Of a stretch of DNA of 32,024 bases, positions 16,091 through 32,024 are shown piece after piece. Each line of letters opens with the position of its first letter. The stretch's first letter is position 1. A program made the translations under genes and the position numbers. The notes under the pieces were generated by a model. That model searched no databases, had not been told where the DNA came from, and saw only the letters and a list, made by a program, of their open reading frames with translations. The stretch comes from Komarekiella atlantica HA4396-MV6 (GTDB lineage Bacteria > Cyanobacteriota > Cyanobacteriia > Cyanobacteriales > Nostocaceae). The stretch lies in assembly GCA_019359395.1 (NCBI GenBank), contig JAHHHK010000053.1, positions 1 through 32,024 on the forward strand, read 5' to 3'.

Positions 16091-16096
16091 GATAAC
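16091..16096. other. Target-site duplication, left copy (GATAAC)
   Basis: GATAAC immediately precedes the element's TGTAG end, and the same six bases follow its ACA end at 20013-20018. In both places they encode Asp-Asn in the same frame of the split gene, which fixes the insertion point. Confidence 0.85.
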
Positions 16097-16339
16097 TGTA
16101 GCGAACTGCAAACATAAATCATCAAAACTGCAATCAAGGCAAATTTGAAACCACATTAATCTGCAACTAGAGGTAGTCTCAAAACCACAATAATTGCGGC
16201 CCAAACCACAATAATTGCAACGAAACTGCAAACAAGCATTCTGAAACCACAATAAATGCAACTAAGCGCTCAAGCTATATCCAGAAGCAGTTTGAGGGGA
16301 TTATTGTCTAAAACTGTCTAGATTAAACGAGGAATTAAA
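16097..16339 (+). repeat. Left terminal inverted repeat, 243 bp
   Basis: This sequence is repeated in inverted orientation, without a mismatch that I can find, at 19770-20012. Inside it are four copies of AAACCACAATAATTGCAAC or close variants (16148, 16182, 16203 and 16244) and three copies of a GAAACTGCAAACAA-type motif (about 16102, 16124 and 16222). These are the probable transposase binding sites. Confidence 0.85.
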
Positions 16340-16442
16340 TCGAACACATATATTCATTTTTTGTGGTTTAATTTAAACTAATACCGTCCAGAAAAATATT
16401 GATTGCGGTTGAAAGTGGAACCCCCCTGTTTCTCCTCTTCTT
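16340..16442. promoter_or_regulatory. Possible recombination (res) site and promoter region
   Basis: About 100 bases separate the left repeat from the serine recombinase. In resolvase-bearing transposons the resolution site lies next to the resolvase gene, so it is expected here. I see no unambiguous paired binding sites, only AT-rich sequence with a TTTAATTTAAA stretch. Confidence 0.3.
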
Positions 16443-17060
16443 ATGGTTATTTATGCTTACTTGCGAGTTTCAAGTGATCACCAAGACCTCAACAATCAAC
16501 GGCATGGCATCTTGGAGTATGCCAATGTACACGGGTTAAGCCCAATCCTCTTTGTAGAGGATACTGTTTCTGGGCGGGAGAAATGGCAGTCACGAGCAGT
16601 GGGCAAACTAATTACTGAAACCGCAACAGCATCTGATGTAATCATTTTCTCCGAAGTCAGCCGCATGGCACGTTCCACACTGCAAGTGCTAGAAATGTTG
16701 GAATGTTGTGTACGTCGCTCAATTAATGTCCATATTGCAAAGCAAGGTATGGTATTAGACGGTTCCATGCAGAGTCGGATTACAGCTACTGTCCTGGGGT
16801 TAGCAGCAGAAATTGAGCGAGAATTGATTGCCCTGAGAACAACTGAAGCACTAGCCAAGCGTAGGGTTGAAGGTAAACCACTAGGGCGACCAAAAGGAAG
16901 GCAATCAGCACGACTGAAACTGGATGCTAAAGAAGCGGAGATTCGTAACTATCTGTCCCTTGGCATCAGCAAACGCTCTATAGCCAAACTGGTGGATTGT
17001 TCTCCCTCCACACTTTACGACTGGTTAGAGAAGCGGCATCTACATCCACATCGCTCCTAA
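16443..17060 (+). CDS. Serine recombinase (resolvase/invertase family)
   Basis: This 205-residue protein has the resolvase catalytic domain: a YLRVSS start with nucleophile Ser10, EVSRMARS near residue 70, and an AEIERELIALRTTEAL segment leading to helix E. The C-terminus is an HTH (GISKRSIAKLVDCSPSTLYDWL) that binds the recombination site. It resembles the Mpi/Hin-like branch more than Tn3 resolvase in my reading. In the transposon it should resolve cointegrates formed by replicative transposition. The first gene of the element, it starts 103 bases inside the left repeat and is followed 16 bases later by the transposase. Confidence 0.9.
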   Translation: MVIYAYLRVSSDHQDLNNQRHGILEYANVHGLSPILFVEDTVSGREKWQSRAVGKLITETATASDVIIFSEVSRMARSTLQVLEMLECCVRRSINVHIAKQGMVLDGSMQSRITATVLGLAAEIERELIALRTTEALAKRRVEGKPLGRPKGRQSARLKLDAKEAEIRNYLSLGISKRSIAKLVDCSPSTLYDWLEKRHLHPHRS

Positions 17061-17076
17061 ATGATAGAGGTGGATT

Positions 17077-18726
17077 GTGCCAAGTAGAAGAATACCGCCA
17101 GAAACAATAGTAGATTTGCGTCGCCGCCTAGATCTACTGCCACCGCGCAGTAGTGAGCGTCGCGCTCTGATTGAGGAAATAGCACAGCTATACGGTGTCT
17201 CACTTGATACAGTATATCGGGCATTAAAGCAAGGAAAACAGTTGCGGTCATTGCACCGAGTGGATTGTGGCATACCGCGTGTCATGCCCAGAAACAGTTT
17301 AGAGCGTTACTGTGAAGTAATTGCGGCATTAAAGATACGTACATCCAACCGCAAAGGTCATCACTTATCCACATCTGAAGCGATTCGCTTGTTAGAAGAA
17401 CACGGAATTCAAACTGCCGATGGTCATGTTCAAGCTCCACCGGGGTTATTGAAACCAACCACCGTCAACCGTTACCTCAAACAATGGGGCTATGACCACA
17501 ATACCCTGAGACGACAACCAGCCGCCGTCCGTTTTCAAGCCGAAGAAAGTAACCAATGTTGGCACTTTGACCTCAGCCAATCCGACCTCAAACACGTTAA
17601 AGCCCCAATTTGGATGGAATCAGGACGGGGACATCCCTTACTGATGCTCTATAGTGTCGTAGATGACCGAAGTGGTGTTACTTACCAGGAATATCATGGG
17701 GTCTATGGTGAAGACGTAGAAGCAGCATTACGATTTATGTTTGCTGCCATGTCGCCCAAACCCCAGTCCGACTTTTCATTTCAAGGCATTCCCCAAATGC
17801 TGTATATGGATAACGGGCCTATTGCCAAAAGCTTGGTATTTCAAAAAATTATGGGTTATTTGGGAGTAGAGATACGTACCCACTTGCCACAAGGAAAAGA
17901 CGGACGACGAGTGACTGCTAGGTCTAAAGGTAAAGTCGAGCGTCCGTTTCGCAGTGTCAAGGAAATGCACGAAACACTCTATCACTTGTATGAACCAGAA
18001 ACCGAAGCCGAAGCAAACTCTTGGTTAATGCGGTTTTTGCTCCATTACAACCGTCAATCCCATCGCAGTGAACCTCATTCCCGCATGGAAGATTGGGTGG
18101 CCAACTTACCCAAGGCGGGAGTTCGCCAAATGTGTACCTGGGAGCGTTTTTGTACTTTTGCACGCGAACCAGAACGTCGAAAGGTAGGCATTGATGCCCG
18201 GATTACTGTAGAAGGGGTGAGCTATGAAGTAGATCCTGATTTGGCTGGTGAAACTGTCATCCTCTGGTGGGGTTTGTTCGATAACGAACTGTATGTGGAA
18301 GCAGGCGAACGACGCTATGGCCCTTATACCCCCGTAGGCGCACCCATTCCCCTACATCGCTACCGCAGCTTCAAGAAAACCCGAACACAACAGCGTGCAG
18401 ATAAAATCGAGTCGTTAGCTAAAGAATTAGTATTACCTGCTAGCGCCATTGGTCAAGTAGACTTACTGAGTAGTCCCAGTGGTCAGATGGAATTAAGAGT
18501 TCAGTCGTTCGTAGATCCAGACCCGTTCCAGGAACTGACCTTCCCTACCGTCATTGCAGCCAAATTGGCGATCGCCGATTATTTGGGACAGCCCCTAGCC
18601 AAGCTAACACCACTTCAGATGGCTGATGTAGATGCAATTTTGGGCAATACACTCAATAAGCAAGCAGTGATGTCGCAGATTCGAGATTATTTTCATCCCA
18701 AAGGGGGGAGGCTCCATGCAGAGTGA
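17077..18726 (+). CDS. tniA: TniA-like DDE transposase
   Basis: This 549-residue protein starts with a GTG preceded by AGAGGTGG. An N-terminal HTH (VSLDTVYRALKQG, residues 41-53) and a second HTH-like region (about 95-140) precede the DDE core: D165 (HFDLSQSD), D245 (YMDNGP) and E288 (KGKVERPFRSVKEMHE). The C-terminal beta-barrel region (about 365-440) matches the Mu-type transposase C-terminal domain. It catalyses strand transfer with the TniB-like ATPase. Its 3' end overlaps the next gene by 11 bases. The gene symbol denotes family resemblance, not proven orthology. Confidence 0.9.
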   Translation: MPSRRIPPETIVDLRRRLDLLPPRSSERRALIEEIAQLYGVSLDTVYRALKQGKQLRSLHRVDCGIPRVMPRNSLERYCEVIAALKIRTSNRKGHHLSTSEAIRLLEEHGIQTADGHVQAPPGLLKPTTVNRYLKQWGYDHNTLRRQPAAVRFQAEESNQCWHFDLSQSDLKHVKAPIWMESGRGHPLLMLYSVVDDRSGVTYQEYHGVYGEDVEAALRFMFAAMSPKPQSDFSFQGIPQMLYMDNGPIAKSLVFQKIMGYLGVEIRTHLPQGKDGRRVTARSKGKVERPFRSVKEMHETLYHLYEPETEAEANSWLMRFLLHYNRQSHRSEPHSRMEDWVANLPKAGVRQMCTWERFCTFAREPERRKVGIDARITVEGVSYEVDPDLAGETVILWWGLFDNELYVEAGERRYGPYTPVGAPIPLHRYRSFKKTRTQQRADKIESLAKELVLPASAIGQVDLLSSPSGQMELRVQSFVDPDPFQELTFPTVIAAKLAIADYLGQPLAKLTPLQMADVDAILGNTLNKQAVMSQIRDYFHPKGGRLHAE

Positions 18727-19687
18727 GGTCATGAGCTTCTATAATCTCAAGCGCACCTTTGACTATGTAGGCTACTTTGAAACTGAGTATCAAACGCAAC
18801 TATTCAAAGAACTCAAAATCCTGATTCGTTCTGGTCGGCTGATTGCGATATCAGGGATTGTTGGTTGTGGGAAAACGACCGCCTTGCAAAGATTGCAATC
18901 AGAATTAGTCACAGAAAAAGAAATCATCATTTCTCGCAGTTTTGTGGTTGATAGAGAGAAAGTCAACTTGAACACGTTAATGACTGCTCTGTTTTGTGAC
19001 TTGACTACGGACAAGGATAATAAATTGCCGAATCAACCTGAGCAACGGGAACGTAAGTTAGCTTCTTTAATACACAAAAGCCGTAAACCTGTAGCATTAT
19101 TCGTGGATGAAGCTCATGATTTAAGTACCAAGACACTGGTTGGGCTGAAAAAGTTAATTGAAATGGCACGGTTCAACAACGGTACTCTATCTGTGGTTCT
19201 CGCAGGACACCCCAAACTTAAAAATGATTTGCGCCATCCCCGCACCGAAGAGATTGGTGCGCGGACGGATGTGTTTAGCTTAGAGGGTATTAAAGGACAG
19301 CAAAAGCAATATATTCAGTGGTTACTGAACCAGTGTCTTGAAGAGCCACACATCAGTGAAGACCTAATTGAAGATGAGGCCCTAGAAATGTTGGCGACTA
19401 AACTGGTAACACCATTACAAATTGAACATTACCTGGGGCTGGCGTTTGAAGAAGCTTATAAAATTGGGCAAAAACCAGTGACAGCAGGAATTATTGAAGC
19501 GGTGTTGACGGCTGGCATTAATGATTTGGAACCTCGCCTAATTCGGCAAGGTTACAACACCAAAATTTTAGCCAATTTGTTGAATATACGGACTGCTGAG
19601 GTTCGTTCTTTTCTCCAAGGTCAGTTACCTACCAGCCGTACTCAAGATTTGCGAGAGCAACTGCTTAAGGTTGGGATTCCTTTGTGA
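18716..19687 (+). CDS. tniB: TniB-like AAA+ ATPase
   Basis: This 323-residue protein has Walker A GIVGCGKTT (residues 47-55) and Walker B ALFVDEAH (127-134), followed by sensor-like VVLAGHPKL. It belongs to the ExeA/TnsC/TniB group that selects targets and activates the DDE transposase. GGGGAGG precedes the ATG, and the 11-base overlap with the transposase indicates coupled translation. The C-terminus (about 270-320) is helical and probably contacts the transposase. No TniQ/TnsD-type target selector is present, so target choice is presumably set by this protein alone. Confidence 0.88.
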   Translation: MQSEVMSFYNLKRTFDYVGYFETEYQTQLFKELKILIRSGRLIAISGIVGCGKTTALQRLQSELVTEKEIIISRSFVVDREKVNLNTLMTALFCDLTTDKDNKLPNQPEQRERKLASLIHKSRKPVALFVDEAHDLSTKTLVGLKKLIEMARFNNGTLSVVLAGHPKLKNDLRHPRTEEIGARTDVFSLEGIKGQQKQYIQWLLNQCLEEPHISEDLIEDEALEMLATKLVTPLQIEHYLGLAFEEAYKIGQKPVTAGIIEAVLTAGINDLEPRLIRQGYNTKILANLLNIRTAEVRSFLQGQLPTSRTQDLREQLLKVGIPL

Positions 19688-19769
19688 TTGTCAAATCATA
19701 CCTGATTATCAATTTTACTGAACGAGAAACGTCCAATTTATATCTAATAATTTGTACACACCTGTCTGC

Positions 19770-20012
19770 TTTAATTCCTCGTTTAATCTAGACAGTTTTA
19801 GACAATAATCCCCTCAAACTGCTTCTGGATATAGCTTGAGCGCTTAGTTGCATTTATTGTGGTTTCAGAATGCTTGTTTGCAGTTTCGTTGCAATTATTG
19901 TGGTTTGGGCCGCAATTATTGTGGTTTTGAGACTACCTCTAGTTGCAGATTAATGTGGTTTCAAATTTGCCTTGATTGCAGTTTTGATGATTTATGTTTG
20001 CAGTTCGCTACA
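19770..20012 (-). repeat. Right terminal inverted repeat, 243 bp
   Basis: This is the complement of 16097-16339. An open frame crossing it into the flanking gene is a chimera, not a real gene. Confidence 0.85.
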
Positions 20013-20315
20013 GATAACTTGTCTTCTGCTCAGGAACCAAAAAACCATCATGAAGGTGAAAGTTGGGCGTTGGCTGACTCAAATCCTGAAAAATGGTCGC
20101 ATGAGGCTGTCGTTGCTCGGTCTAAGGCACGACCAGGGCGGATGCAGAAACTGAAGATGGCAGAGAGATTGGGCGAAAATCCAGGGGATGAGTTTTTGAT
20201 GGAATGTTGGGCTGATGATCCAGCCTTGCGGATTGTGATCAAGGGGTTGCTAAGTAAGTTTCCACAGTGGGGTATCGCTTGTGTAGATGGGGTGTTGGTG
20301 AAAGCGAACGAGTAG
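20013..20315 (+). pseudogene. 3' part of the gene split by the transposon
   Basis: It starts with the duplicated GATAAC (Asp-Asn) and continues in the frame of the 15221 gene for a further 98 codons beyond the duplication. The segment is rich in Glu/Lys/Ala with ARSKARPGRMQKLKMAERLG, DEFLMECWADDP and a C-terminal FPQWGIACVDG. It looks like a compact helical domain. The mobile-element end upstream supplies no start codon in a suitable position, so it is probably not expressed as a functional protein. Confidence 0.8.
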
Positions 20316-25508: not shown

Positions 25509-25763
25509 ATGACATTTGTAGCCTTATATGAAGACTTGAATTACGATGCCTGTGAGAACCTTAGCGGAGGAGTTAGGAAATACGGGATAGAGGTACAAAA
25601 CGGCCAAGTAAAAAAGCAAACTTCTGACGAAAAAGCATTTGGAAAGTCTTTCAAAGGAACTGGCGGGCAATGCTTTATTCGGAATTATTTAGAGCCAGGT
25701 ACGATAATTTATCCCGACGACCCAAACGAATACCCGATCTTTGTATCTCCTAAACCATCATAA
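25509..25763 (+). CDS. GG-leader peptide, 84 residues
   Basis: The leader ends LNYDACENLSGG (residues 10-21), with GG 12 residues from Leu as in the other peptides. The 63-residue core is Lys/Gly/Pro-rich with one Cys (CFIRNYLEPG), an acidic Pro-Asp-Asp-Pro stretch and SPKPS at the end. Cys15 in the leader is unusual. GAGG sits 8 bases before the ATG. Its conserved element copy lies directly upstream, so it is the most compact promoter-gene unit of the set. Function: candidate exported peptide, modification unknown. Confidence 0.65.
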   Translation: MTFVALYEDLNYDACENLSGGVRKYGIEVQNGQVKKQTSDEKAFGKSFKGTGGQCFIRNYLEPGTIIYPDDPNEYPIFVSPKPS

Positions 25764-25810
25764 ATATGTTAAGTCTTCGTTATAAGAAGTAGGAGCTACT
25801 TTTTAAGAGT
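25764..25810 (+). promoter_or_regulatory. Conserved element copy 5, downstream half only
   Basis: GTCTTCGTTATAAGAAGTAG matches the TTATAA half (25780-25785) and its flanks, but no GGAATA lies 18 bases upstream. It probably served the 26180 peptide gene before mobile DNA entered between them. Confidence 0.45.
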
Positions 25811-25865
25811 AGGCTTACAGGGGATTCAAGGACAAGAACAGGTTAGAACAAAAGTAGCAAGCCTA

Positions 25866-26043
25866 AGCTCGACTTTATCCAAAATTAAGAACTCGGTTTT
25901 CTTTATGGAGCAAAAACCCTGACTTTTTGGCAAATACTTTTTCCACTTCACAGATTATCGATGAAGTTAAAAAGTAAAACTATCGTTCCACAGAGGCTTT
26001 AGCGATAGCGAGCGCGCTGCTGGAAAATGGATAAAGTCGAGCT
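25866..26043. mobile_element. MITE-like element
   Basis: AGCTCGACTTTATCCA (25866-25881) and its perfect complement TGGATAAAGTCGAGCT (26028-26043) flank a 178-bp segment without any open frame. The size and ends suit a non-autonomous miniature element. Confidence 0.6.
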
Positions 26044-26045
26044 AA

Positions 26046-26128
26046 GAGGATGTTTGAAAAGTAATGAGAGGTGAGATTTTATGCCAAACGCCTCACCATG
26101 ATGCGGATCATAGCAAGACTGAAAAAAT
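26046..26128 (-). pseudogene. IS5-like transposase 3' remnant
   Basis: Read leftwards, codons at 26079-26120 give SLAMIRIMVRRLA-stop, the typical end of IS5-family transposases of cyanobacteria. Beyond the stop is GAGGATGTTTGAAAAGT in plus orientation, a likely IS end. Only the tail of the element remains. Confidence 0.5.
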
Positions 26129-26179
26129 ATAAATTAATTTGTCTTAACATTTTTAAAAAATGATAAGCGAGGTTTAATA

Positions 26180-26539
26180 ATGACTGAACAGACCCAAAAA
26201 AGCTTTAAAAGGGGCACTAAGCTTTCTTTTATTGAGGAACTTTCTAGAGAAGAAGCTGCTAATGTTTCTGGTGGTACTTCACAAAGCCTACAGAACCCTT
26301 ACGGCTACGGTTTAAACTTAAATTCTTACTGCAAACAAAAGTATGGCAGTTCATCTAAGGAAGTTTTAATAGAGAACAATGCTTACGGTTGGAGGTGTCT
26401 TGTCCAAGGAGGAAACTTAGTGGGTATCAATATTGATGAAGCCTGCCAAATGCATTACGGTTACTCGGCAAAAAGCGCACTAGGAAATTACAACGATCCT
26501 AGTTCTTGGTATTGCAATGCAGAATATCTAAGACGTTAA
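26180..26539 (+). CDS. GG-leader peptide with duplicated Cys-paired repeat
   Basis: This 119-residue protein has a leader ending LSREEAANVSGG (residues 21-32), then an 87-residue core made of two homologous units: LNLNSYCKQKYG to GWRC (residues 45-73) and INIDEACQMHYG to SWYC (83-112). Cys51/Cys73 and Cys89/Cys112 are 22 and 23 residues apart, so one disulfide per unit is likely. Similar repeats with a YG core and an (N/D)xxxxW-x-C end appear, to my memory, in secreted proteins of actinobacteria and cyanobacteria, where some are lectin-like. GAGG precedes the ATG. A conserved-element half lies upstream beyond the mobile remnants. Confidence 0.7.
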   Translation: MTEQTQKSFKRGTKLSFIEELSREEAANVSGGTSQSLQNPYGYGLNLNSYCKQKYGSSSKEVLIENNAYGWRCLVQGGNLVGINIDEACQMHYGYSAKSALGNYNDPSSWYCNAEYLRR

Positions 26540-26674
26540 CAATTGAAATCGTGAATACTTAGTATTTTTTTGATAACACAATTAAGTGTAAAAACTTGAG
26601 AGCAATAAATAAACAATTTATTTCTTTTCTAAGCATGTTTGTAAAGTATTACCTTTTATAAGAGGTTTTTAATT

Positions 26675-26956
26675 ATGTTATATCAAAATATTACATCTGA
26701 TTTAATTTTAGAGTTATCTACAGCAGAACAGCAACTCTTCTCTGGAGGGCGAGAATTTAATGCAAGCAGAGAGCAATACCTGGCTGGTGCTGGACGATTA
26801 GGACTTTTAAACGAAAAACTTGAACTCAAATGGAATCAAGTGAACTATACCTGTTACAGAGGTTATTTAAGCTACCGCGAGTTGGGAATTACTCTGAAAA
26901 AGGGAGAAGAATCGCAAAAACAAGACTCTTATCATTTCTCTTGCTACAGTTCTTAA
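26675..26956 (+). CDS. GG-leader peptide, 93 residues
   Basis: The leader ends LSTAEQQLFSGG (residues 14-25). The core of 68 residues has Arg/Glu-rich helical sequence, a central NYTCYRGYLSYRELG and a Cys-containing end (FSCYSS), so a disulfide or thioether between Cys60 and Cys91 is possible. AGAGG lies 8 bases before the ATG. No conserved element directly precedes it, so it may be cotranscribed with the gene at 26180 (136 bases away). Candidate exported peptide. Confidence 0.65.
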   Translation: MLYQNITSDLILELSTAEQQLFSGGREFNASREQYLAGAGRLGLLNEKLELKWNQVNYTCYRGYLSYRELGITLKKGEESQKQDSYHFSCYSS

Positions 26957-26987
26957 TATTTTCACTTTTTGATAGGTTTCAAAATCC

Positions 26988-27046
26988 TTTGCTAGTTTTG
27001 GAATATTCTCTATTAGATCTTCGTTATAAAGAATAGAAACTATTCA
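26988..27046 (+). promoter_or_regulatory. Conserved element copy 6
   Basis: GGAATA at 27000-27005 and TTATAA at 27024-27029, 18 apart, preceded by TTTGCTAGTTTT and followed by AGAATAGAAACT. It lies 87 bases before the peptide gene at 27117. Confidence 0.6.
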
Positions 27047-27116
27047 TTATAAATAGTTTCACAACCATCTAAAACATAAAATTTTTACTCAGCTTTGTCA
27101 TAACGGAGGAAACGAA

Positions 27117-27476
27117 ATGTCAAGAGCTAAACAGACTATTAATCCCTACGCAGAATTAAATGATACCAAAGGATTTAGAGAACTATCTGATATAGAATCA
27201 TCACTAGTTACTGGAGGAGTTGCATGGTCTACTAGTTGGAAAGATACTTCACTTACTCAAAACGACTGCGAAAATACGGCAAGACTTGCAATATTACGGT
27301 CGGGACTTAATGCTCAATATGCTAACCCTCAGACTTGGTATGCATATAGTGGTGACAATGTAGTTTTTGCAAGATGTGTAGGCAGTAAGAATCTAGTATA
27401 TTTTACGGGAGCAGGTTCCTCATCTTTTAGTGACGTTAGTACTCTTAGGGAGAATGTTTCCAATAACTTCTTTTAA
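27117..27476 (+). CDS. GG-leader peptide, 119 residues
   Basis: The leader ends LSDIESSLVTGG (residues 23-34). The 85-residue core has Cys51 and Cys87, a Trp-rich beginning (AWSTSWKD), a helix (ENTARLAIL), a beta-like YFTGAGSSSF region and an Asn-rich end. GGAGGA is 7 bases before the ATG. Conserved element copy 6 lies upstream. The core looks like a small folded secreted domain rather than a short modified peptide, which suggests a bacteriocin or small effector. Confidence 0.65.
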   Translation: MSRAKQTINPYAELNDTKGFRELSDIESSLVTGGVAWSTSWKDTSLTQNDCENTARLAILRSGLNAQYANPQTWYAYSGDNVVFARCVGSKNLVYFTGAGSSSFSDVSTLRENVSNNFF

Positions 27477-27666
27477 AGTAAGTTAATTAACCTTCTTTCA
27501 TCTCTTTCACAAAACAATGATCAAAGCAGGAAACTTAAACTATGACTTAATAAAGTTTGAGGATTTATTTTCTAATAGAAATTCAAAAATTCTAGCTAAA
27601 ACTTGGGATACGAAGTTTCGTAAGCCTTGCAGCAATTGCTTTTTCCAAAGACTGATGCAAAAAGGT

Positions 27667-27692
27667 TAATAAGAAATAGAAACTGCTCATTC
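27667..27692 (+). promoter_or_regulatory. Conserved element copy 8, partial
   Basis: TAATAAGAAATAGAAACTG matches the downstream flank of the element (TAAGAAATAGCAACTG in the consensus), but GGAATA is absent at the right spacing. It lies upstream of the 62-residue peptide gene. Confidence 0.4.
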
Positions 27693-27713
27693 TTAACAAA
27701 GGAGTATTTAACA

Positions 27714-27902
27714 ATGATTAGCAATCTTCCTTATCTTGAAGAACTTACGTCTAAAGAAGCTGAAGTCATTAAAGGTGGATGGTTTTTTGATTCATGGTGG
27801 CCACAGGAACCTAAACCTCCTGCTCGTAAGCCTATAAATTCGCCGCCTATCGATCCATCAAAAGAGTTTATCTTGTACCCTGTAAAGGGCGTTGTTGCGT
27901 GA
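27714..27902 (+). CDS. GG-leader peptide with Trp/Pro-rich core
   Basis: The start at 27714 is chosen because GGAG lies 9 bases upstream; a longer frame from 27627 is possible but has no such site. The 62-residue product has a leader ending LTSKEAEVIKGG (residues 11-22) and a 40-residue core that opens WFFDSWWPQEPKPPARKP and is rich in Pro and Trp. The aromatic and Pro-rich core contains no Cys, so crosslinking would have to use aromatics or none. Candidate exported peptide. Confidence 0.65.
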   Translation: MISNLPYLEELTSKEAEVIKGGWFFDSWWPQEPKPPARKPINSPPIDPSKEFILYPVKGVVA

Positions 27903-28527: not shown

Positions 28528-28672
28528 TGGAAGTCAATATCGACCTAACCTTTACTGCTTAATTACTGTTGGCTTGATTATTAAATCTCATAAAGAGAGC
28601 AGTAAAGTAAAATTGTCTTTTTTGCTTAGTAGTATCATAAGTATCTAGCTAAATTTGCAAGGAGATTTTCGT

Positions 28673-29125
28673 ATGAATTCTTTCCCCAATCAGTTATCAA
28701 CTCGTCTGTCTCTATTATTGATTATCGCAATATCTTTTTTACTCGACAATCCAGCCAGCGCAGTAAACTCTAGTCCTACTGTTCCTTCCCAAGAAGCTAT
28801 AAACTCTATACCTTCTATTGAATTTTCCCCGATTTTAGCTGAAAAACTAGAATCACTAATTGTCCAAGAAACAGAACTGCTGGCAAATTCAAACTCATTT
28901 CAGGACTTCAGTGGTGACCCTGGCTCATTTATACAATCTGTTCCAACAAGAAAAAGACGATATCCATGGGGACGATATCCATGGGGACGATATCCATGGG
29001 ATAGACCAATACCAAATCCAGGTAGTCCGATACCAAATCTAGGTAGTCCGATACCAAATCCAGGTAGTCCGATACCAAATCCAGGTAGTCCGATACCAAA
29101 TCCAAGACCTGACTTTCCCCGTTAA
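28673..29125 (+). CDS. Secreted RiPP precursor with RYPW(G/D) repeats (GrrA/OscA-like)
   Basis: The start at 28673 has AAGGAG 9 bases upstream. The 150-residue protein has a Sec-type signal (residues 10-30, ending NPASA), a Ser/Pro-rich spacer, a helical leader (about 51-72, SPILAEKLESLIVQE) and a core. The core has three tandem RYPWG/RYPWD units (96-111) and four PIPNPGS units. The leader resembles that of cyanobacterial GrrA/OscA precursors, which GRRM-type radical SAM enzymes crosslink at W-x-(N/D/R)-type motifs. Here the W-G-R and W-D-R triplets would be the targets. The core differs from the usual Gly-rich form, so it is a divergent member. The next gene downstream is the maturase. Confidence 0.75.
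   Translation: MNSFPNQLSTRLSLLLIIAISFLLDNPASAVNSSPTVPSQEAINSIPSIEFSPILAEKLESLIVQETELLANSNSFQDFSGDPGSFIQSVPTRKRRYPWGRYPWGRYPWDRPIPNPGSPIPNLGSPIPNPGSPIPNPGSPIPNPRPDFPR
28958..29110 (+). repeat. Tandem repeats in the precursor gene
   Basis: A 15-base unit CGATATCCATGGGGA occurs three times (28958-29002), and a 21-base unit CCGATACCAAATCCAGGTAG plus one base occurs four times from 29006, with a partial fifth. Near-identity of the copies points to recent expansion, a common way for RiPP cores to vary. Confidence 0.8.
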
Positions 29126-29815
29126 GTCGTAAAATTTTGAAAGAGTAAGGATTTCAAATGACAATAAATGACGAGAGAATAGAACTTTGAGATGATGAAA
29201 GGAGCGATCTCATCCGCTCAAAAGATAACAGGAAAAGTTAGATCCAAGACCGTATCGTTAGTATGTAAATCTCAAGTCATAGAAGCTTGTACTATCGGGA
29301 CTTAGACATTTTTGAGACAGAAACAAGCCTCAAAGGCATGTAGGGGAAGAAGAATATATCAAAAGCTCAAAAATGCTTGAAACTAGATATATTAAGAAAC
29401 TAGGTAAACCGATGTCAAAGTCCTTCTGTATATACGTTTGATGTTTTTTTCTAGCAGGTTTTTGTCTAAGTCCTACTATAGCTTTCTTAAAATAAATAAC
29501 AGATGTGTATGACTTCGCTCTTTTTGTGGACTCTAATAACAGACAAAATGGTCTTATAGGCTGCGTTATTTCAAGAGAATAGATTTTAAGGTTTTGAAAC
29601 TTCTTGAAAAAATGTTGGTTTCAATACCGTAGTACAAAGAGAGTAGTAGAATAGAATTTATGAATAGATTAAATATTAATTGAATATTTATAAGCATAGT
29701 TGTTAGTTAATCATAGCTTTATATTTTAAGTTAGATAATTTTTTAAAAATAAAAAAATCAATTTTTAAGACTTAAATAAATAATGATTAATTAAAAAAGG
29801 AGTAAATTAAAAGGT
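29126..29815. other. Gene-free gap before the maturase operon
   Basis: There is no convincing gene in 690 bases. A 37-codon frame beginning at 29192 (MMKGAISSAQKITGKVRS to stop) has no clear support. Sequence from 29640 is very AT-rich and probably contains the maturase promoter. Confidence 0.35.
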
Positions 29816-31012
29816 ATGGAAACCAAGACTAAGAAAGTTCAATTTGTTATTAAATCTTCTAAATTTTGTAACCTGCGATGTCGTTATTGCTATGAATTTT
29901 TAGAACTTGGTAATAGGGAAGCGATTACGCTAGATCAATTAAAGCAAATGTACAAGCATATTGCTAGCTATTATCTAAAATTGGAGCATCCTGTAGAAAT
30001 TGAGTTTATTTGGCATGGTGGAGAACCTCTCTTGCAAACGCCAGATTATTACTGGCAAACCTTTGATCAGCAACAACAAATTTTTGCTGAACTAAGAGGC
30101 AATATTACAAATAGTGTACAAACTAATCTAACTTTACTTAGTAAAAAACATATTCAATTATTAAGAAGTGGCTTTGATGGTGTTGGTGTTTCTGTAGATT
30201 TGTTTGGAGGCTTACGCGTCAATCAAGCTAATACTGATTCTCAGAAAATTGTGTTAAATAATATGAATCGTCTGAGAGAAGAAAATATTCTCTTTGCATG
30301 TATTACTGTTTTAACTAAATTGAATTTGCCTTATATTCGAGAAATTTATAAATTTTATGAAAGTAGAAATATTTCTTTTCGGATTTTGCCTTTATTTAAG
30401 GGCGCATTCGATGGACAACATACAGGATTTGAAATTGATGACAACGATGTATTAAAAGCTTTTTGTACTTTAGTTGACTTATGGATGGAGAGCGATCAAT
30501 TAGTTGCAGTTAGCCCACTTATCGAGTATATTGCACAGATTCTTCATTATTACACTCCAAATTGCGAGCCTTATTTTTATAATAAACTAGAATGGGAATC
30601 AGTTTATTTAGTAAATGTCAACGGCGATATTTACAGTTATGCAGATGCTTACAATTCTAATTTTTGTCATGGTAATTTATTTACTACAGCTATGGAAGAG
30701 ATAGTTTTGGGAATTGCTCATCAAAAAGCAATAGCAGCAGCAGAAGAACGTATAATCTCTACTTGTACATCATGTCGATTTTTTGGTAGCTGTAGTGGCT
30801 ACCCAGTTGCGGAATTAAGTATCCCAAACAATCAGATTGATAAACAAGGTAGAATTTATTGTCATAGAGAAAAAGAAGTTTTACAACATATCGAAATACG
30901 TTTAATACAAGCTGGAATTATTGATCCAATAAAAGGTAGTCTTAACAATATGGAACTTGGATCTTTGTCTAAATCTCTAGCTGCTATACCCACACTAGAT
31001 TCTCCTGTTTGA
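29816..31012 (+). CDS. Radical SAM/SPASM maturase, GRRM/OscB-like
   Basis: This 398-residue protein has the radical SAM motif C18-NLR-C22-RY-C25, GGEP at 68-71, and a C-terminal SPASM region. The SPASM region has NGDIYSYADAYN (269-280), C284, C317-x2-C320-x5-C326 and C349, enough for one or two auxiliary Fe-S clusters. This is the layout of GRRM/OscB/XyeB-type enzymes that form three-residue cyclophane links on precursor peptides. Its likely substrate is the RYPW-repeat precursor 690 bases upstream. An AAGGAG lies 15 bases before the ATG and another AAAGG just before it. The next gene follows after 50 bases, so both are probably one operon. Confidence 0.85.
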   Translation: METKTKKVQFVIKSSKFCNLRCRYCYEFLELGNREAITLDQLKQMYKHIASYYLKLEHPVEIEFIWHGGEPLLQTPDYYWQTFDQQQQIFAELRGNITNSVQTNLTLLSKKHIQLLRSGFDGVGVSVDLFGGLRVNQANTDSQKIVLNNMNRLREENILFACITVLTKLNLPYIREIYKFYESRNISFRILPLFKGAFDGQHTGFEIDDNDVLKAFCTLVDLWMESDQLVAVSPLIEYIAQILHYYTPNCEPYFYNKLEWESVYLVNVNGDIYSYADAYNSNFCHGNLFTTAMEEIVLGIAHQKAIAAAEERIISTCTSCRFFGSCSGYPVAELSIPNNQIDKQGRIYCHREKEVLQHIEIRLIQAGIIDPIKGSLNNMELGSLSKSLAAIPTLDSPV

Positions 31013-31062
31013 GTAAAATATAATTTTTCAAAATTGGACTAAATAACTACTAAATAAAATCA

Positions 31063-31950
31063 ATGTTAATTAAGAAGACTTTAGAATTACAGAAGGGAAT
31101 TAAAATTTTTTTTCAAACAGATATTGATTTTGAAAAACATAGAATTTTTCTAAGTTCAGGCACGTCAACAGAAGTTGAACAGACATTGGCTCAGATTAAA
31201 TATTGTAAAGGTGCTTTCGTGCCCAAAGAATCATGGAGAGAACCAAACATTGAAGAAAAAACCCTCTTGGGTATAAATGAACAGTTAGTAAATATTAACA
31301 TGTGGGACTTACATCAATATATAGGGTTAATTCGTATCCCTGATAAGGTTTTAGCACCACTGGAAGCAATACTAGAAAATGTTAGGAAGAGTCCTGCAAT
31401 TGCACTAGAAGAATGGCAAGCTGTTGTTACACATCCAGAAGTTGAAAATGTTATTGTAGAAGTTAGCAACTATCTAATGCCCTATTGTCTATTCAGACAT
31501 AGATTTAAAGTATTAGGTCTGTATATTAAGCCGCCTGGATTGAAAACAGTGACAGTTAATTCCGTCAACAATCAATCCGAAAATCTTTATATCGGTATGC
31601 ACTTAGATAGTTGGGATAGATATCCTCTCAGACGTAGACATAAATCAAGAAATCGCATATGTATTAATTTGGGTTGTGAAGATCGCTTCTTTTTGTTTAT
31701 CAATTTAACTTTGATAGATATGTTTTACGCTTTAGGTTTGTTAATTCCTAAAGACATTCATAAGCATTATCGAGGAACCGAATTAGGAAACGAGTTTATG
31801 AAACAATATCCTTCATACCCGGTAGTTAAACTTACAGTAAGACCAAATGAGGCATACATTGCCCCTACCGATAATTTAATTCATGATGCTTCTACAAGGG
31901 GTAGAGCTGGCGAAGCTGTGATGAAGTGCAAACTAAACTGTTTAGTTTAA
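31063..31950 (+). CDS. Putative Fe(II)/2-oxoglutarate-dependent oxygenase
   Basis: This 295-residue protein has the double-stranded beta-helix signature: H180-L-D182 (MHLDSWD) as the metal-binding HxD, a distal H274 (NLIHDAST) and R281 as a candidate 2-oxoglutarate anchor. Typical strands (NRICINLGC, FFLFINLTL) lie between. The metal-triad spacing fits the family. It follows the radical SAM maturase by 50 bases, so I infer that it hydroxylates or otherwise oxidises the same peptide after cyclophane formation. No ribosome-binding site precedes the ATG. The assignment rests on the motif pattern alone. Confidence 0.6.
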   Translation: MLIKKTLELQKGIKIFFQTDIDFEKHRIFLSSGTSTEVEQTLAQIKYCKGAFVPKESWREPNIEEKTLLGINEQLVNINMWDLHQYIGLIRIPDKVLAPLEAILENVRKSPAIALEEWQAVVTHPEVENVIVEVSNYLMPYCLFRHRFKVLGLYIKPPGLKTVTVNSVNNQSENLYIGMHLDSWDRYPLRRRHKSRNRICINLGCEDRFFLFINLTLIDMFYALGLLIPKDIHKHYRGTELGNEFMKQYPSYPVVKLTVRPNEAYIAPTDNLIHDASTRGRAGEAVMKCKLNCLV

Positions 31951-32024
31951 CAACGGAGCATAATCATAGACGTTTCTCTCTTGGCTACGCATTTTGTATC
32001 TCAGATTCTAATTCTCAATAAATC
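31951..32024. other. Window-edge intergenic sequence
   Basis: No feature seen in the last 74 bases. An exporter or leader peptidase for the peptides may lie beyond the edge. Confidence 0.3.

What the first reader, a model, noticed from the sequence alone, without database searches (positions are those of the whole stretch)
28673..31950. Divergent cyclophane-type RiPP unit: RYPW-repeat precursor, radical SAM/SPASM enzyme and Fe/2OG-like enzyme
The precursor has a Sec signal, a GrrA/OscA-like helical leader and three exact RYPWG/RYPWD repeats instead of the usual Gly-rich core. The maturase has CX3CX2C and SPASM cysteines. A third gene has HxD...H...R. The combination of repeated W-G-R sites with a second oxidising enzyme looks unusual, and I know of no described system with this core.
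Basis: partly seen in the sequence, partly recalled or inferred. Interest (0 to 1): 0.85.

Follow-up and report, generated by a model that had tools for sequence, protein, structure and literature searches.

The report
Cyclophane peptide cluster, oxygenase cut
A cyanobacterium carries three genes that look set to make a small ring-linked peptide (a precursor, a radical enzyme and an oxygenase), but the striking repeats lie in a tail beside the conserved core, and a transposon end has cut off the oxygenase gene.

Summary
Three things change. (1) Precursor homology ends just before the RYPW repeats. The conserved core is SFQDFSGDPGSFIQ; its F-I-Q aligns with W-V-Q of Hassallia. In 27 related precursors 93 of 108 core F/W residues carry D/E/N/Q/R/K at +2 (shuffles 37%), the spacing of three-residue cyclophanes. 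The RYPW repeat was found in 1 of 388 genomes of the order, the window's own. (2) The maturase meets no NCBIfam cut-off and falls in an unnamed clade with cyanobacteria, Streptomyces, Nocardia and Polyangium. Like GrrM and FxsB/YhhB-like rows it lacks cysteines at two SPASM columns. (3) The third protein is homologous to the 2OG oxygenase MicC (PDB 9vkm). Homologues stand beside or fused to window-type maturases, beside GrrM/OscB, and near FxsB/YhhB-like maturases. In the window its C-terminus is replaced at nt 31898 by a Tn3-type transposon end, so that step is probably lost. New variant of a known kind; no chemistry is shown.

The parts
28659..28664 (+). ribosome-binding-like AAGGAG before the precursor start
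   Evidence: sequence
28673..29125 (+). precursor gene (P0001, 150 aa): Sec-like N-terminus, leader with EAINSIPSIxFSxxLxEKLExL, core, repeat tail
   Evidence: ORF; 46.6% identity over 88 aa to the Hassallia precursor
28895..28939 (+). conserved core SFQDFSGDPGSFIQS with candidate cross-link motifs F-Q-D (28898-28906) and F-I-Q (28928-28936)
   Evidence: alignments with relatives; coordinates
28956..29002 (+). tail 1: (RYPWG)2RYPWD from three exact 15-bp copies; candidate W-x-R motifs
   Evidence: found in 1 of 388 genomes of the order, the window's own
29002..29104 (+). tail 2: 21-bp repeat, 4.9 copies, encoding (GSPIPNP)n; stands where 15 of 18 cyanobacterial precursors have a C-terminal SAV-type follower
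29816..31012 (+). radical SAM/SPASM maturase (P0002, 398 aa): C18-x3-C22-x2-C25; four SPASM cysteines C317, C320, C326, C349
   Evidence: Pfam PF04055; NCBIfam scores; tree; cysteine table
31063..31897 (+). MicC-type 2OG oxygenase, truncated: H180, D182 and H274 present, the C-terminal segment of relatives missing
   Evidence: PDB 9vkm_A E 6.4e-23; 58% identity to the Hassallia protein up to residue 278
31898..32024 (+). end of a Tn3-type transposon (GGGGTAGAGCTGGCGAAGCTGTG...); completes codon 279 and codes 280-295 of the ORF, stop at 31950; the contig ends inside it
   Evidence: 127-bp identity with contig C76 and two inverted copies in C72 around a Tn3 transposase

Best explanation
This is a three-residue-cyclophane-type RiPP unit of an unnamed radical SAM/SPASM clade. 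The maturase probably links an aromatic side chain (position 1) to the residue two places on (position 3) in the core F-Q-D and F-I-Q motifs, and possibly in the W-G-R/W-D-R motifs of the repeat tail. In relatives a MicC-type Fe/2OG oxygenase then probably oxidises the cross-linked peptide, most simply by hydroxylating the acceptor residue. In this strain that gene is cut at its 3' end by a Tn3-type transposon, so the oxygenase is probably impaired or dead, and the precursor tail consists of repeats. Shown here: gene order, homology, motif spacing, truncation. Inferred: cross-link chemistry, hydroxylation, order of steps, export.
For: In the cyanobacterial and several actinobacterial loci read, a small Sec-type or Nif11-type precursor lies directly upstream of the maturase (loci). 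Core F/W residues of 27 precursors have D/E/N/Q/R/K at +2 in 93 of 108 cases against 37% in shuffles, 0 of 5000 as high; in a less redundant 18, 59 of 71. The maturase has no cysteine at columns 275 and 330, as in 5 of 5 GrrM and 6 of 6 FxsB/YhhB-like rows; 4 of 4 other rows (one sulfatase maturase, one CbpB, two unnamed) have both. Of 25 loci fetched around oxygenase homologues other than the window's, 4 have a window-type maturase next to it, 4 a GrrM/OscB and 7 an FxsB/YhhB-like one within about 2.3 kb. In L073 two tandem genes fuse window-type maturase and oxygenase. MicC homology; the model resembles Fe/2OG dioxygenases.
Against: No product or activity is known to me for any member of the clade. 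10 of the 25 oxygenase loci have no such maturase in the stretch fetched; of these I read L033, L036 and L044, and in L036 the next gene is a TPR-sulfotransferase. 7 of 13 cyanobacterial maturase loci have no oxygenase in the stretch fetched. For several actinobacterial maturase loci (such as L082, L084, L085, L088) I saw no clear precursor upstream. NCBIfam scores for the cyclophane families are far under their cut-offs. The window precursor lacks the follower that 15 of 18 cyanobacterial precursors have. Foldseek hits are weak (none at E up to 0.001).
Confidence: 0.68

Rival explanations
1. The RYPW repeats are the true core: each RYPW(G/D)R gives one W-x-R cyclophane and the upstream F motifs belong to the leader.
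For: W-G-R/W-D-R fit the aromatic-x-basic rule; with them 6 of the window's 7 F/W fit (own count on the core printed). Published maturases link Trp, Tyr or His to Arg (XncB, YhhB; PMC11002830 passages). Tandem core repeats occur in relatives (L071 FVR x4; L113 W-x-D/E x3).
Against: Homology to relatives covers SFQDF..SFIQ and ends before the repeats; no RYPW pattern in the other 387 genomes of the order searched.
Confidence: 0.25
2. The locus is a decaying remnant: transposon-cut oxygenase, eroded precursor 3' end, no functional product.
For: Transposon junction at 31898; the C-terminal follower is absent and no remnant of it was found in the 690 bp between precursor and maturase, where Hassallia has about 200-300 bp; the one same-genus genome searched has no oxygenase at E up to 0.001 and no maturase at E up to 1e-60.
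Against: Precursor leader and core and the whole maturase are open and conserved, with the listed cysteines; two relatives with Nif11-type precursors (L065, L066) also lack the follower but keep both enzymes.
Confidence: 0.35
3. The maturase makes another bond (ether, thioether, epimer) or acts like a sulfatase maturase.
For: Second-best NCBIfam model is anaerobic sulfatase maturase (127.8 bits); best is dynobactin maturase DynA (159.9 bits).
Against: Two SPASM cysteines that the sulfatase-maturase row keeps are missing; the precursors' aromatic +2 pattern; no Cys in the window core.
Confidence: 0.15
4. The oxygenase does not act on the cyclophane but on the leader, a free amino acid or another peptide.
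For: The family also occurs without a maturase in the stretch fetched, in L036 beside a TPR-sulfotransferase, and in plasmids of Streptomyces and Methylocystis with no radical SAM gene listed within 5 kb (PLSDB gene tables are incomplete).
Against: Fusions to the maturase in L073 and recurrence beside GrrM/OscB and near FxsB/YhhB-like maturases.
Confidence: 0.2

Closest known systems
Triceptides: GrrM/OscB, XncB, YhhB and FxsB three-residue cyclophane maturases
   Same: Radical SAM/SPASM enzyme, small precursor, aromatic-x-acceptor motifs; no cysteine at columns 275 and 330, as in the GrrM and FxsB/YhhB-like rows.
   Different: Separate clade in the tree; NCBIfam scores far below cut-offs; F-x-E/Q motifs are common, while the acceptors named in the review passages read are Asn, Asp, Arg, Ser and Ala (PMC11002830).
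ChlB (fused radical SAM and aKG-HExxH), known here from passages and citations in PMC12636437 and PDB 9gm3
   Same: Cyclophane formation coupled to 2OG-dependent beta-hydroxylation; fusions also exist here (L073).
   Different: The partner here is an HxD...H MicC-type oxygenase with no HExxH motif (sequence), so the pairing with a hydroxylase is probably convergent (inference).
MicC, PDB 9vkm, alpha-ketoglutarate-dependent non-heme iron oxygenase
   Same: Homologous over residues 9-286, with HxD and distal H aligned.
   Different: 28% identity; the window copy lacks the C-terminus. MicC's organism, gene neighbours and substrate were not found with these tools.
Dynobactin maturase DynA (NF041298)
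   Same: Best NCBIfam model for P0002; all 5 members of alignment A1 match it.
   Different: 159.9 bits against a cut-off of 450.

Membership tests
GrrM/OscB (GRRM) system | TIGR04261 score at or above 310 bits | tested here: not met
   88.7 bits
GrrM/OscB (GRRM) system | Gly-rich repeat precursor (GrrA) | tested here: not met
   no NCBIfam match for P0001 at E up to 1; no Gly-rich core in the sequence
XyeB | TIGR04496 at or above 450 bits | tested here: not met
   37.1 bits
FxsB / YhhB | TIGR04269 at or above 370 bits, or NF041707 at or above 445 | tested here: not met
   46.1 and 67.8 bits
DynA (dynobactin) | NF041298 at or above 450 bits | tested here: not met
   159.9 bits
Anaerobic sulfatase maturase | SPASM cysteines at the columns of residues 275 and 330 | tested here: not met
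   Y275 and P330 in the window; C and C in the one sulfatase-maturase row and in 3 further rows (CbpB, two unnamed)
Triceptide (three-residue cyclophane RiPP) | aromatic-x-acceptor motifs in the core | tested here: met
   93 of 108 F/W in 27 precursors against 37% in shuffles; the window has F-Q-D and F-I-Q
Triceptide (three-residue cyclophane RiPP) | aryl-C to C-beta cross-link between i and i+2 | not testable with these tools
   needs MS and NMR
Triceptide (three-residue cyclophane RiPP) | radical SAM with CX3CX2C and SPASM cysteines | tested here: met
   C18/C22/C25 and C317/C320/C326/C349 in the window and in 19 of 19 clade rows, one of which (L123) repeats the locus of L064
MicC-type Fe/2OG oxygenase | sequence homology and HxD...H | tested here: met
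   9vkm E 6.4e-23; H180, D182, H274 invariant in the 19 aligned
MicC-type Fe/2OG oxygenase | C-terminal segment after the distal His | tested here: not met
   homology ends at residue 278; transposon sequence follows
aKG-HExxH hydroxylase (ChlB type) | HExxH motif | tested here: not met
   no HExxH in P0003 (sequence)
Nif11-leader precursor | PF07862/TIGR03798 match | tested here: not met
   none for P0001; relatives L066 and L079 do match PF07862

The most novel reading that the evidence does not exclude
One family of HxD...H oxygenases has been recruited to at least three lineages of cyclophane-type maturases, in one genome as fusions, and works on the strained ring. The window's maturase clade installs cyclophanes with Glu or Gln as acceptor (F/W-x-E/Q: 29 of 71 F/W against 12% in shuffles), a cross-link type that I did not see described in the passages read.
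Probability: 0.3. Interest if true: 0.7.

Novelty: new variant of a known kind. Interest (0 to 1): 0.5.

Why it matters
The clade gives a ready, testable set of substrates for cyclophane chemistry, with Sec-type and Nif11-type leaders serving closely related maturases. Relatives whose oxygenases read through to the end (Hassallia L089, Nostoc L079, Aphanothece L065) and the natural maturase-oxygenase fusions (L073) make the question of what the oxygenase does to a cyclophane directly testable. The window copy itself is a poor choice for the hydroxylation test because its oxygenase gene is cut.

Tried and rejected
Rejected: GrrM/OscB, XyeB, DynA and sulfatase-maturase membership; RYPW as the conserved core; the Arg of HxD...H...R.

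Led nowhere: a viral-contig scan with A1 (50 stretches matched a pattern, none encodes a relative); paper searches for MicC (0 papers hold MicC and cyclophane; 34 papers, none of the 20 listed holds MicC); a GrrM search (0 occurrences of GrrM in the 15 listed of 228) and a ChlB search, which led to the passages on ChlB; a search for MicC's own genome (386 genomes, best identity 35% over a part and 33% over the whole stretch; plasmids, 31.6% for the best row); a search for a remnant of the follower between precursor and maturase; P0004 was made but not searched with.

Limits: the core regions and the follower pattern used were set after seeing the sequences. The 27 precursors were picked by eye from ORF lists, some with a later start codon than the ORF list gives; the precursors of the distant W-type loci L115-L126 and of unclear loci (such as L082, L084, L085, L088, L090-L095) were left out. 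Related sequences inflate the counts; the less redundant 18 are given for that reason. E and Q were added to the acceptor set from the data: with D/N/R/K alone it is 30 of 71 against 25% in shuffles, 3 of 3000 as high. The tree has long branches whose deep joins may be false. Alignment A2 holds 19 of the 26 oxygenase loci in hand when it was made.
Full report
What is in the sequence. The window is the whole of contig C47 of a 7.78-Mb, 80-contig genome. Three genes lie on the + strand: precursor 28673-29125, radical SAM/SPASM enzyme 29816-31012, third gene 31063-31950. AAGGAG and AAAGGAG precede the first two starts; none is obvious before the third. The RYPW part is three exact 15-bp copies, followed by a 21-bp repeat of 4.9 copies.

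The precursor. The closest relative, upstream of a 70%-identical maturase in Hassallia byssoidea, matches window residues coded by 28688-28945 at 46.6% identity over 88 residues; the match ends at SFIQSVP, just before the repeats. F-I-Q of the window aligns with W-V-Q of Hassallia and lies opposite F-V-R of Petrachloros. Precursors of other relatives use either a Sec-like or a Nif11 leader in front of the same kind of core, for example PKFIDFSDEPLFIEVKK (Nif11, L066; Pfam), PFKEGFADFKEKPGFADF (Sec-like, L069) and WTDSWSDSWGES (Sec-like, L113). In 27 precursors, the window's excluded, F or W in the core is followed at +2 by D/E/N/Q/R/K in 93 of 108 cases; shuffles of the same cores give 37% and none of 5000 is as high. 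At +1 it is 43 of 109 and at +3 25 of 108. In 18 less redundant ones it is 59 of 71, made up of 30 D/N/R/K (shuffles 25%) and 29 E/Q (shuffles 12%). This is the spacing of three-residue cyclophanes, between residues i and i+2, as described in the review PMC11002830 (passages read). A C-terminal SAV-type motif (PSAVDTF and the like) is present in 15 of 18 cyanobacterial precursors and absent in the window, where the repeats stand. A degenerate, exact-match DNA pattern for RYPW(G/D)RYPW(G/D) occurs in 1 of 388 genomes of the order, the window's own.

The maturase. Pfam gives Radical_SAM (PF04055), above its cut-off. NCBIfam gives DynA 159.9 (cut-off 450), sulfatase maturase 127.8 (349.45), GrrM/OscB 88.7 (310), YhhB 67.8 (445), FxsB 46.1 (370) and XyeB 37.1 (450) bits; none of the 25 models listed of 61 meets its cut-off. 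A scan of 84,980 species genomes with alignment A1 found 32 loci: 13 cyanobacterial, 1 Polyangium, 11 Streptomyces or Streptantibioticus, 2 Nocardia, 4 alphaproteobacterial and 1 doubtful Christensenella hit. In the order, 16 of 388 genomes have a match at E up to 1e-60, 7 of them at 1e-180 or better; 5 of those 7 have the oxygenase next to a maturase and two (G003, G015) show none within the 1.5-kb flanks. In a 63-row tree the window falls in a 19-row set of cyanobacterial rows, itself included (support 100/95), inside a 48-row set (100/99) that excludes the GrrM and FxsB/YhhB-like rows; the tool warns that several long branches make deep joins unsure. All 19 clade rows (one of them, L123, the same locus as L064) and the window have C18, C22, C25, C317, C320, C326 and C349. 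The columns of residues 275 and 330 hold no cysteine in this clade, in 5 of 5 GrrM rows or in 6 of 6 FxsB/YhhB-like rows, but do in 4 of 4 other rows: one sulfatase maturase, one CbpB and two unnamed SPASM proteins. Which auxiliary cluster is thereby lost (AuxI, from my recollection of sulfatase-maturase structures) was not tested.

The oxygenase. Its only PDB sequence match at E up to 10 is 9vkm, 'Alpha-ketoglutarate-dependent non-heme iron oxygenase MicC', E 6.4e-23. Pfam and NCBIfam list no model for it at E up to 1. A model of mean pLDDT 71.3 resembles Fe/2OG dioxygenases (KdoO, KDO1, SnoK, SptF), none at E up to 0.001. 25 of 388 genomes of the order have a homologue, the window's own included. 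Of 25 loci fetched around homologues other than the window's, 15 hold a relative of the maturase: 4 window-type, directly upstream; 4 GrrM/OscB, each above its cut-off of 310 (437.3, 539.5, 452.7 and 412.9 bits); 7 FxsB/YhhB-like within about 2.3 kb, of which one was scored and fell just under both cut-offs (385.4 of 445 and 363.8 of 370 bits), five are in the tree, and two (L050, L051) were placed by their likeness to L049. The other 10 hold none in the stretch fetched; of these I read L033, L036 and L044, and in L036 the next gene is a TPR-sulfotransferase. Of the 32 named maturase loci, 8 have the oxygenase next to or fused to the maturase, 6 of 13 among cyanobacteria (up to 7 kb each side, less on short contigs). 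Two of those loci, L065 and L066, are the same places as L029 and L030. L073, a Thermosynechococcaceae genome, has two fused genes in tandem; G601 shows long frames of 722 and 769 aa around its two matches, which I did not read further.

The cut. Homology of the third gene to the Hassallia oxygenase runs from its start to nt 31897 (71% DNA identity over 839 columns; 58% protein identity to residue 278) and stops. From 31898 the sequence GGGGTAGAGCTGGCGAAGCTG... is identical over 127 bp with the end of contig C76 and 86-92% alike to two inverted copies in contig C72, which enclose a Tn3 transposase in two frames. The last 17 residues of the ORF are therefore coded at or beyond the junction, while close relatives carry 18 to 32 residues of their own there. 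The 127-bp overlap suggests an assembly-graph join, so the junction deserves long reads.

How it probably works. The maturase would abstract a hydrogen from the side chain two places after an aromatic residue and bond the ring to it, giving -2 Da per motif. In relatives the oxygenase would then add +16 Da, by analogy with ChlB, where hydroxylation depends on a preinstalled cyclophane (PMC12636437 passage). Chemistry and order are inferences. In this strain the second step is probably lost.

Novelty. The pairing 'cyclophane maturase plus 2OG hydroxylase' is known in ChlB with a different hydroxylase fold, and the MicC entry shows that the oxygenase family has been studied. I saw no paper on MicC or on this maturase clade in the listings of ten searches of the open-access library; most subscription papers are not held, so this says little. 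I rate it a new variant of a known kind.

Noticed in passing
window 25509-27902: Five small ORFs in a row (84, 119, 93, 119 and 76 aa) carry double-glycine-like motifs (NLSGG, NVSGG, LFSGG, LVTGG, VIKGG), like leader-type bacteriocin precursors; none of the 5 matches Pfam at E up to 0.001, and 3 of the 5 were tested against NCBIfam without a match.
   Followed up: partly
window 16093-20016: 247-bp inverted repeats (99.6% identical) enclose a resolvase, a 549-aa protein that I take for a transposase and an AAA ATPase: apparently a transposon with long terminal repeats.
   Followed up: partly
L073:6983-11355: Two tandem genes each fuse a window-type maturase to a MicC-type oxygenase, behind a Nif11-like precursor with a W-V-N core.
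   Followed up: partly
L045-L047, L049-L052: MicC-type oxygenases near FxsB/YhhB-like maturases; in the two loci read (L047, L050) there are 58-aa peptides (..MGKEPIAW.DFSSH..) before the maturase and a ~415-aa protein after it: apparently a separate RiPP system. L044 has a related oxygenase but no maturase in its contig.
   Followed up: partly
L033 and L036: MicC-type oxygenase between a 220-aa protein ending in repeated C-x-H-C (CTHCTHCTH) and a ~398-aa TPR protein (a sulfotransferase by Pfam in L036, the one tested), with no relative of the maturase in the 13-kb stretches.
   Followed up: no
L086 and L087 (Nocardia): Precursors with six F-x-Q motifs each (such as PFHQ, PFRQ) next to window-type maturase and oxygenase: a clean set to test Gln as acceptor.
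   Followed up: no
P0002 residue 162: A cysteine outside the known clusters is present in 19 of 19 cyanobacterial clade rows plus the window, 5 of 6 Streptomyces/Polyangium, 5 of 5 second-group Streptomyces and 2 of 2 Nocardia rows, but in none of the W-type, GrrM, FxsB-like or alphaproteobacterial rows.
   Followed up: no
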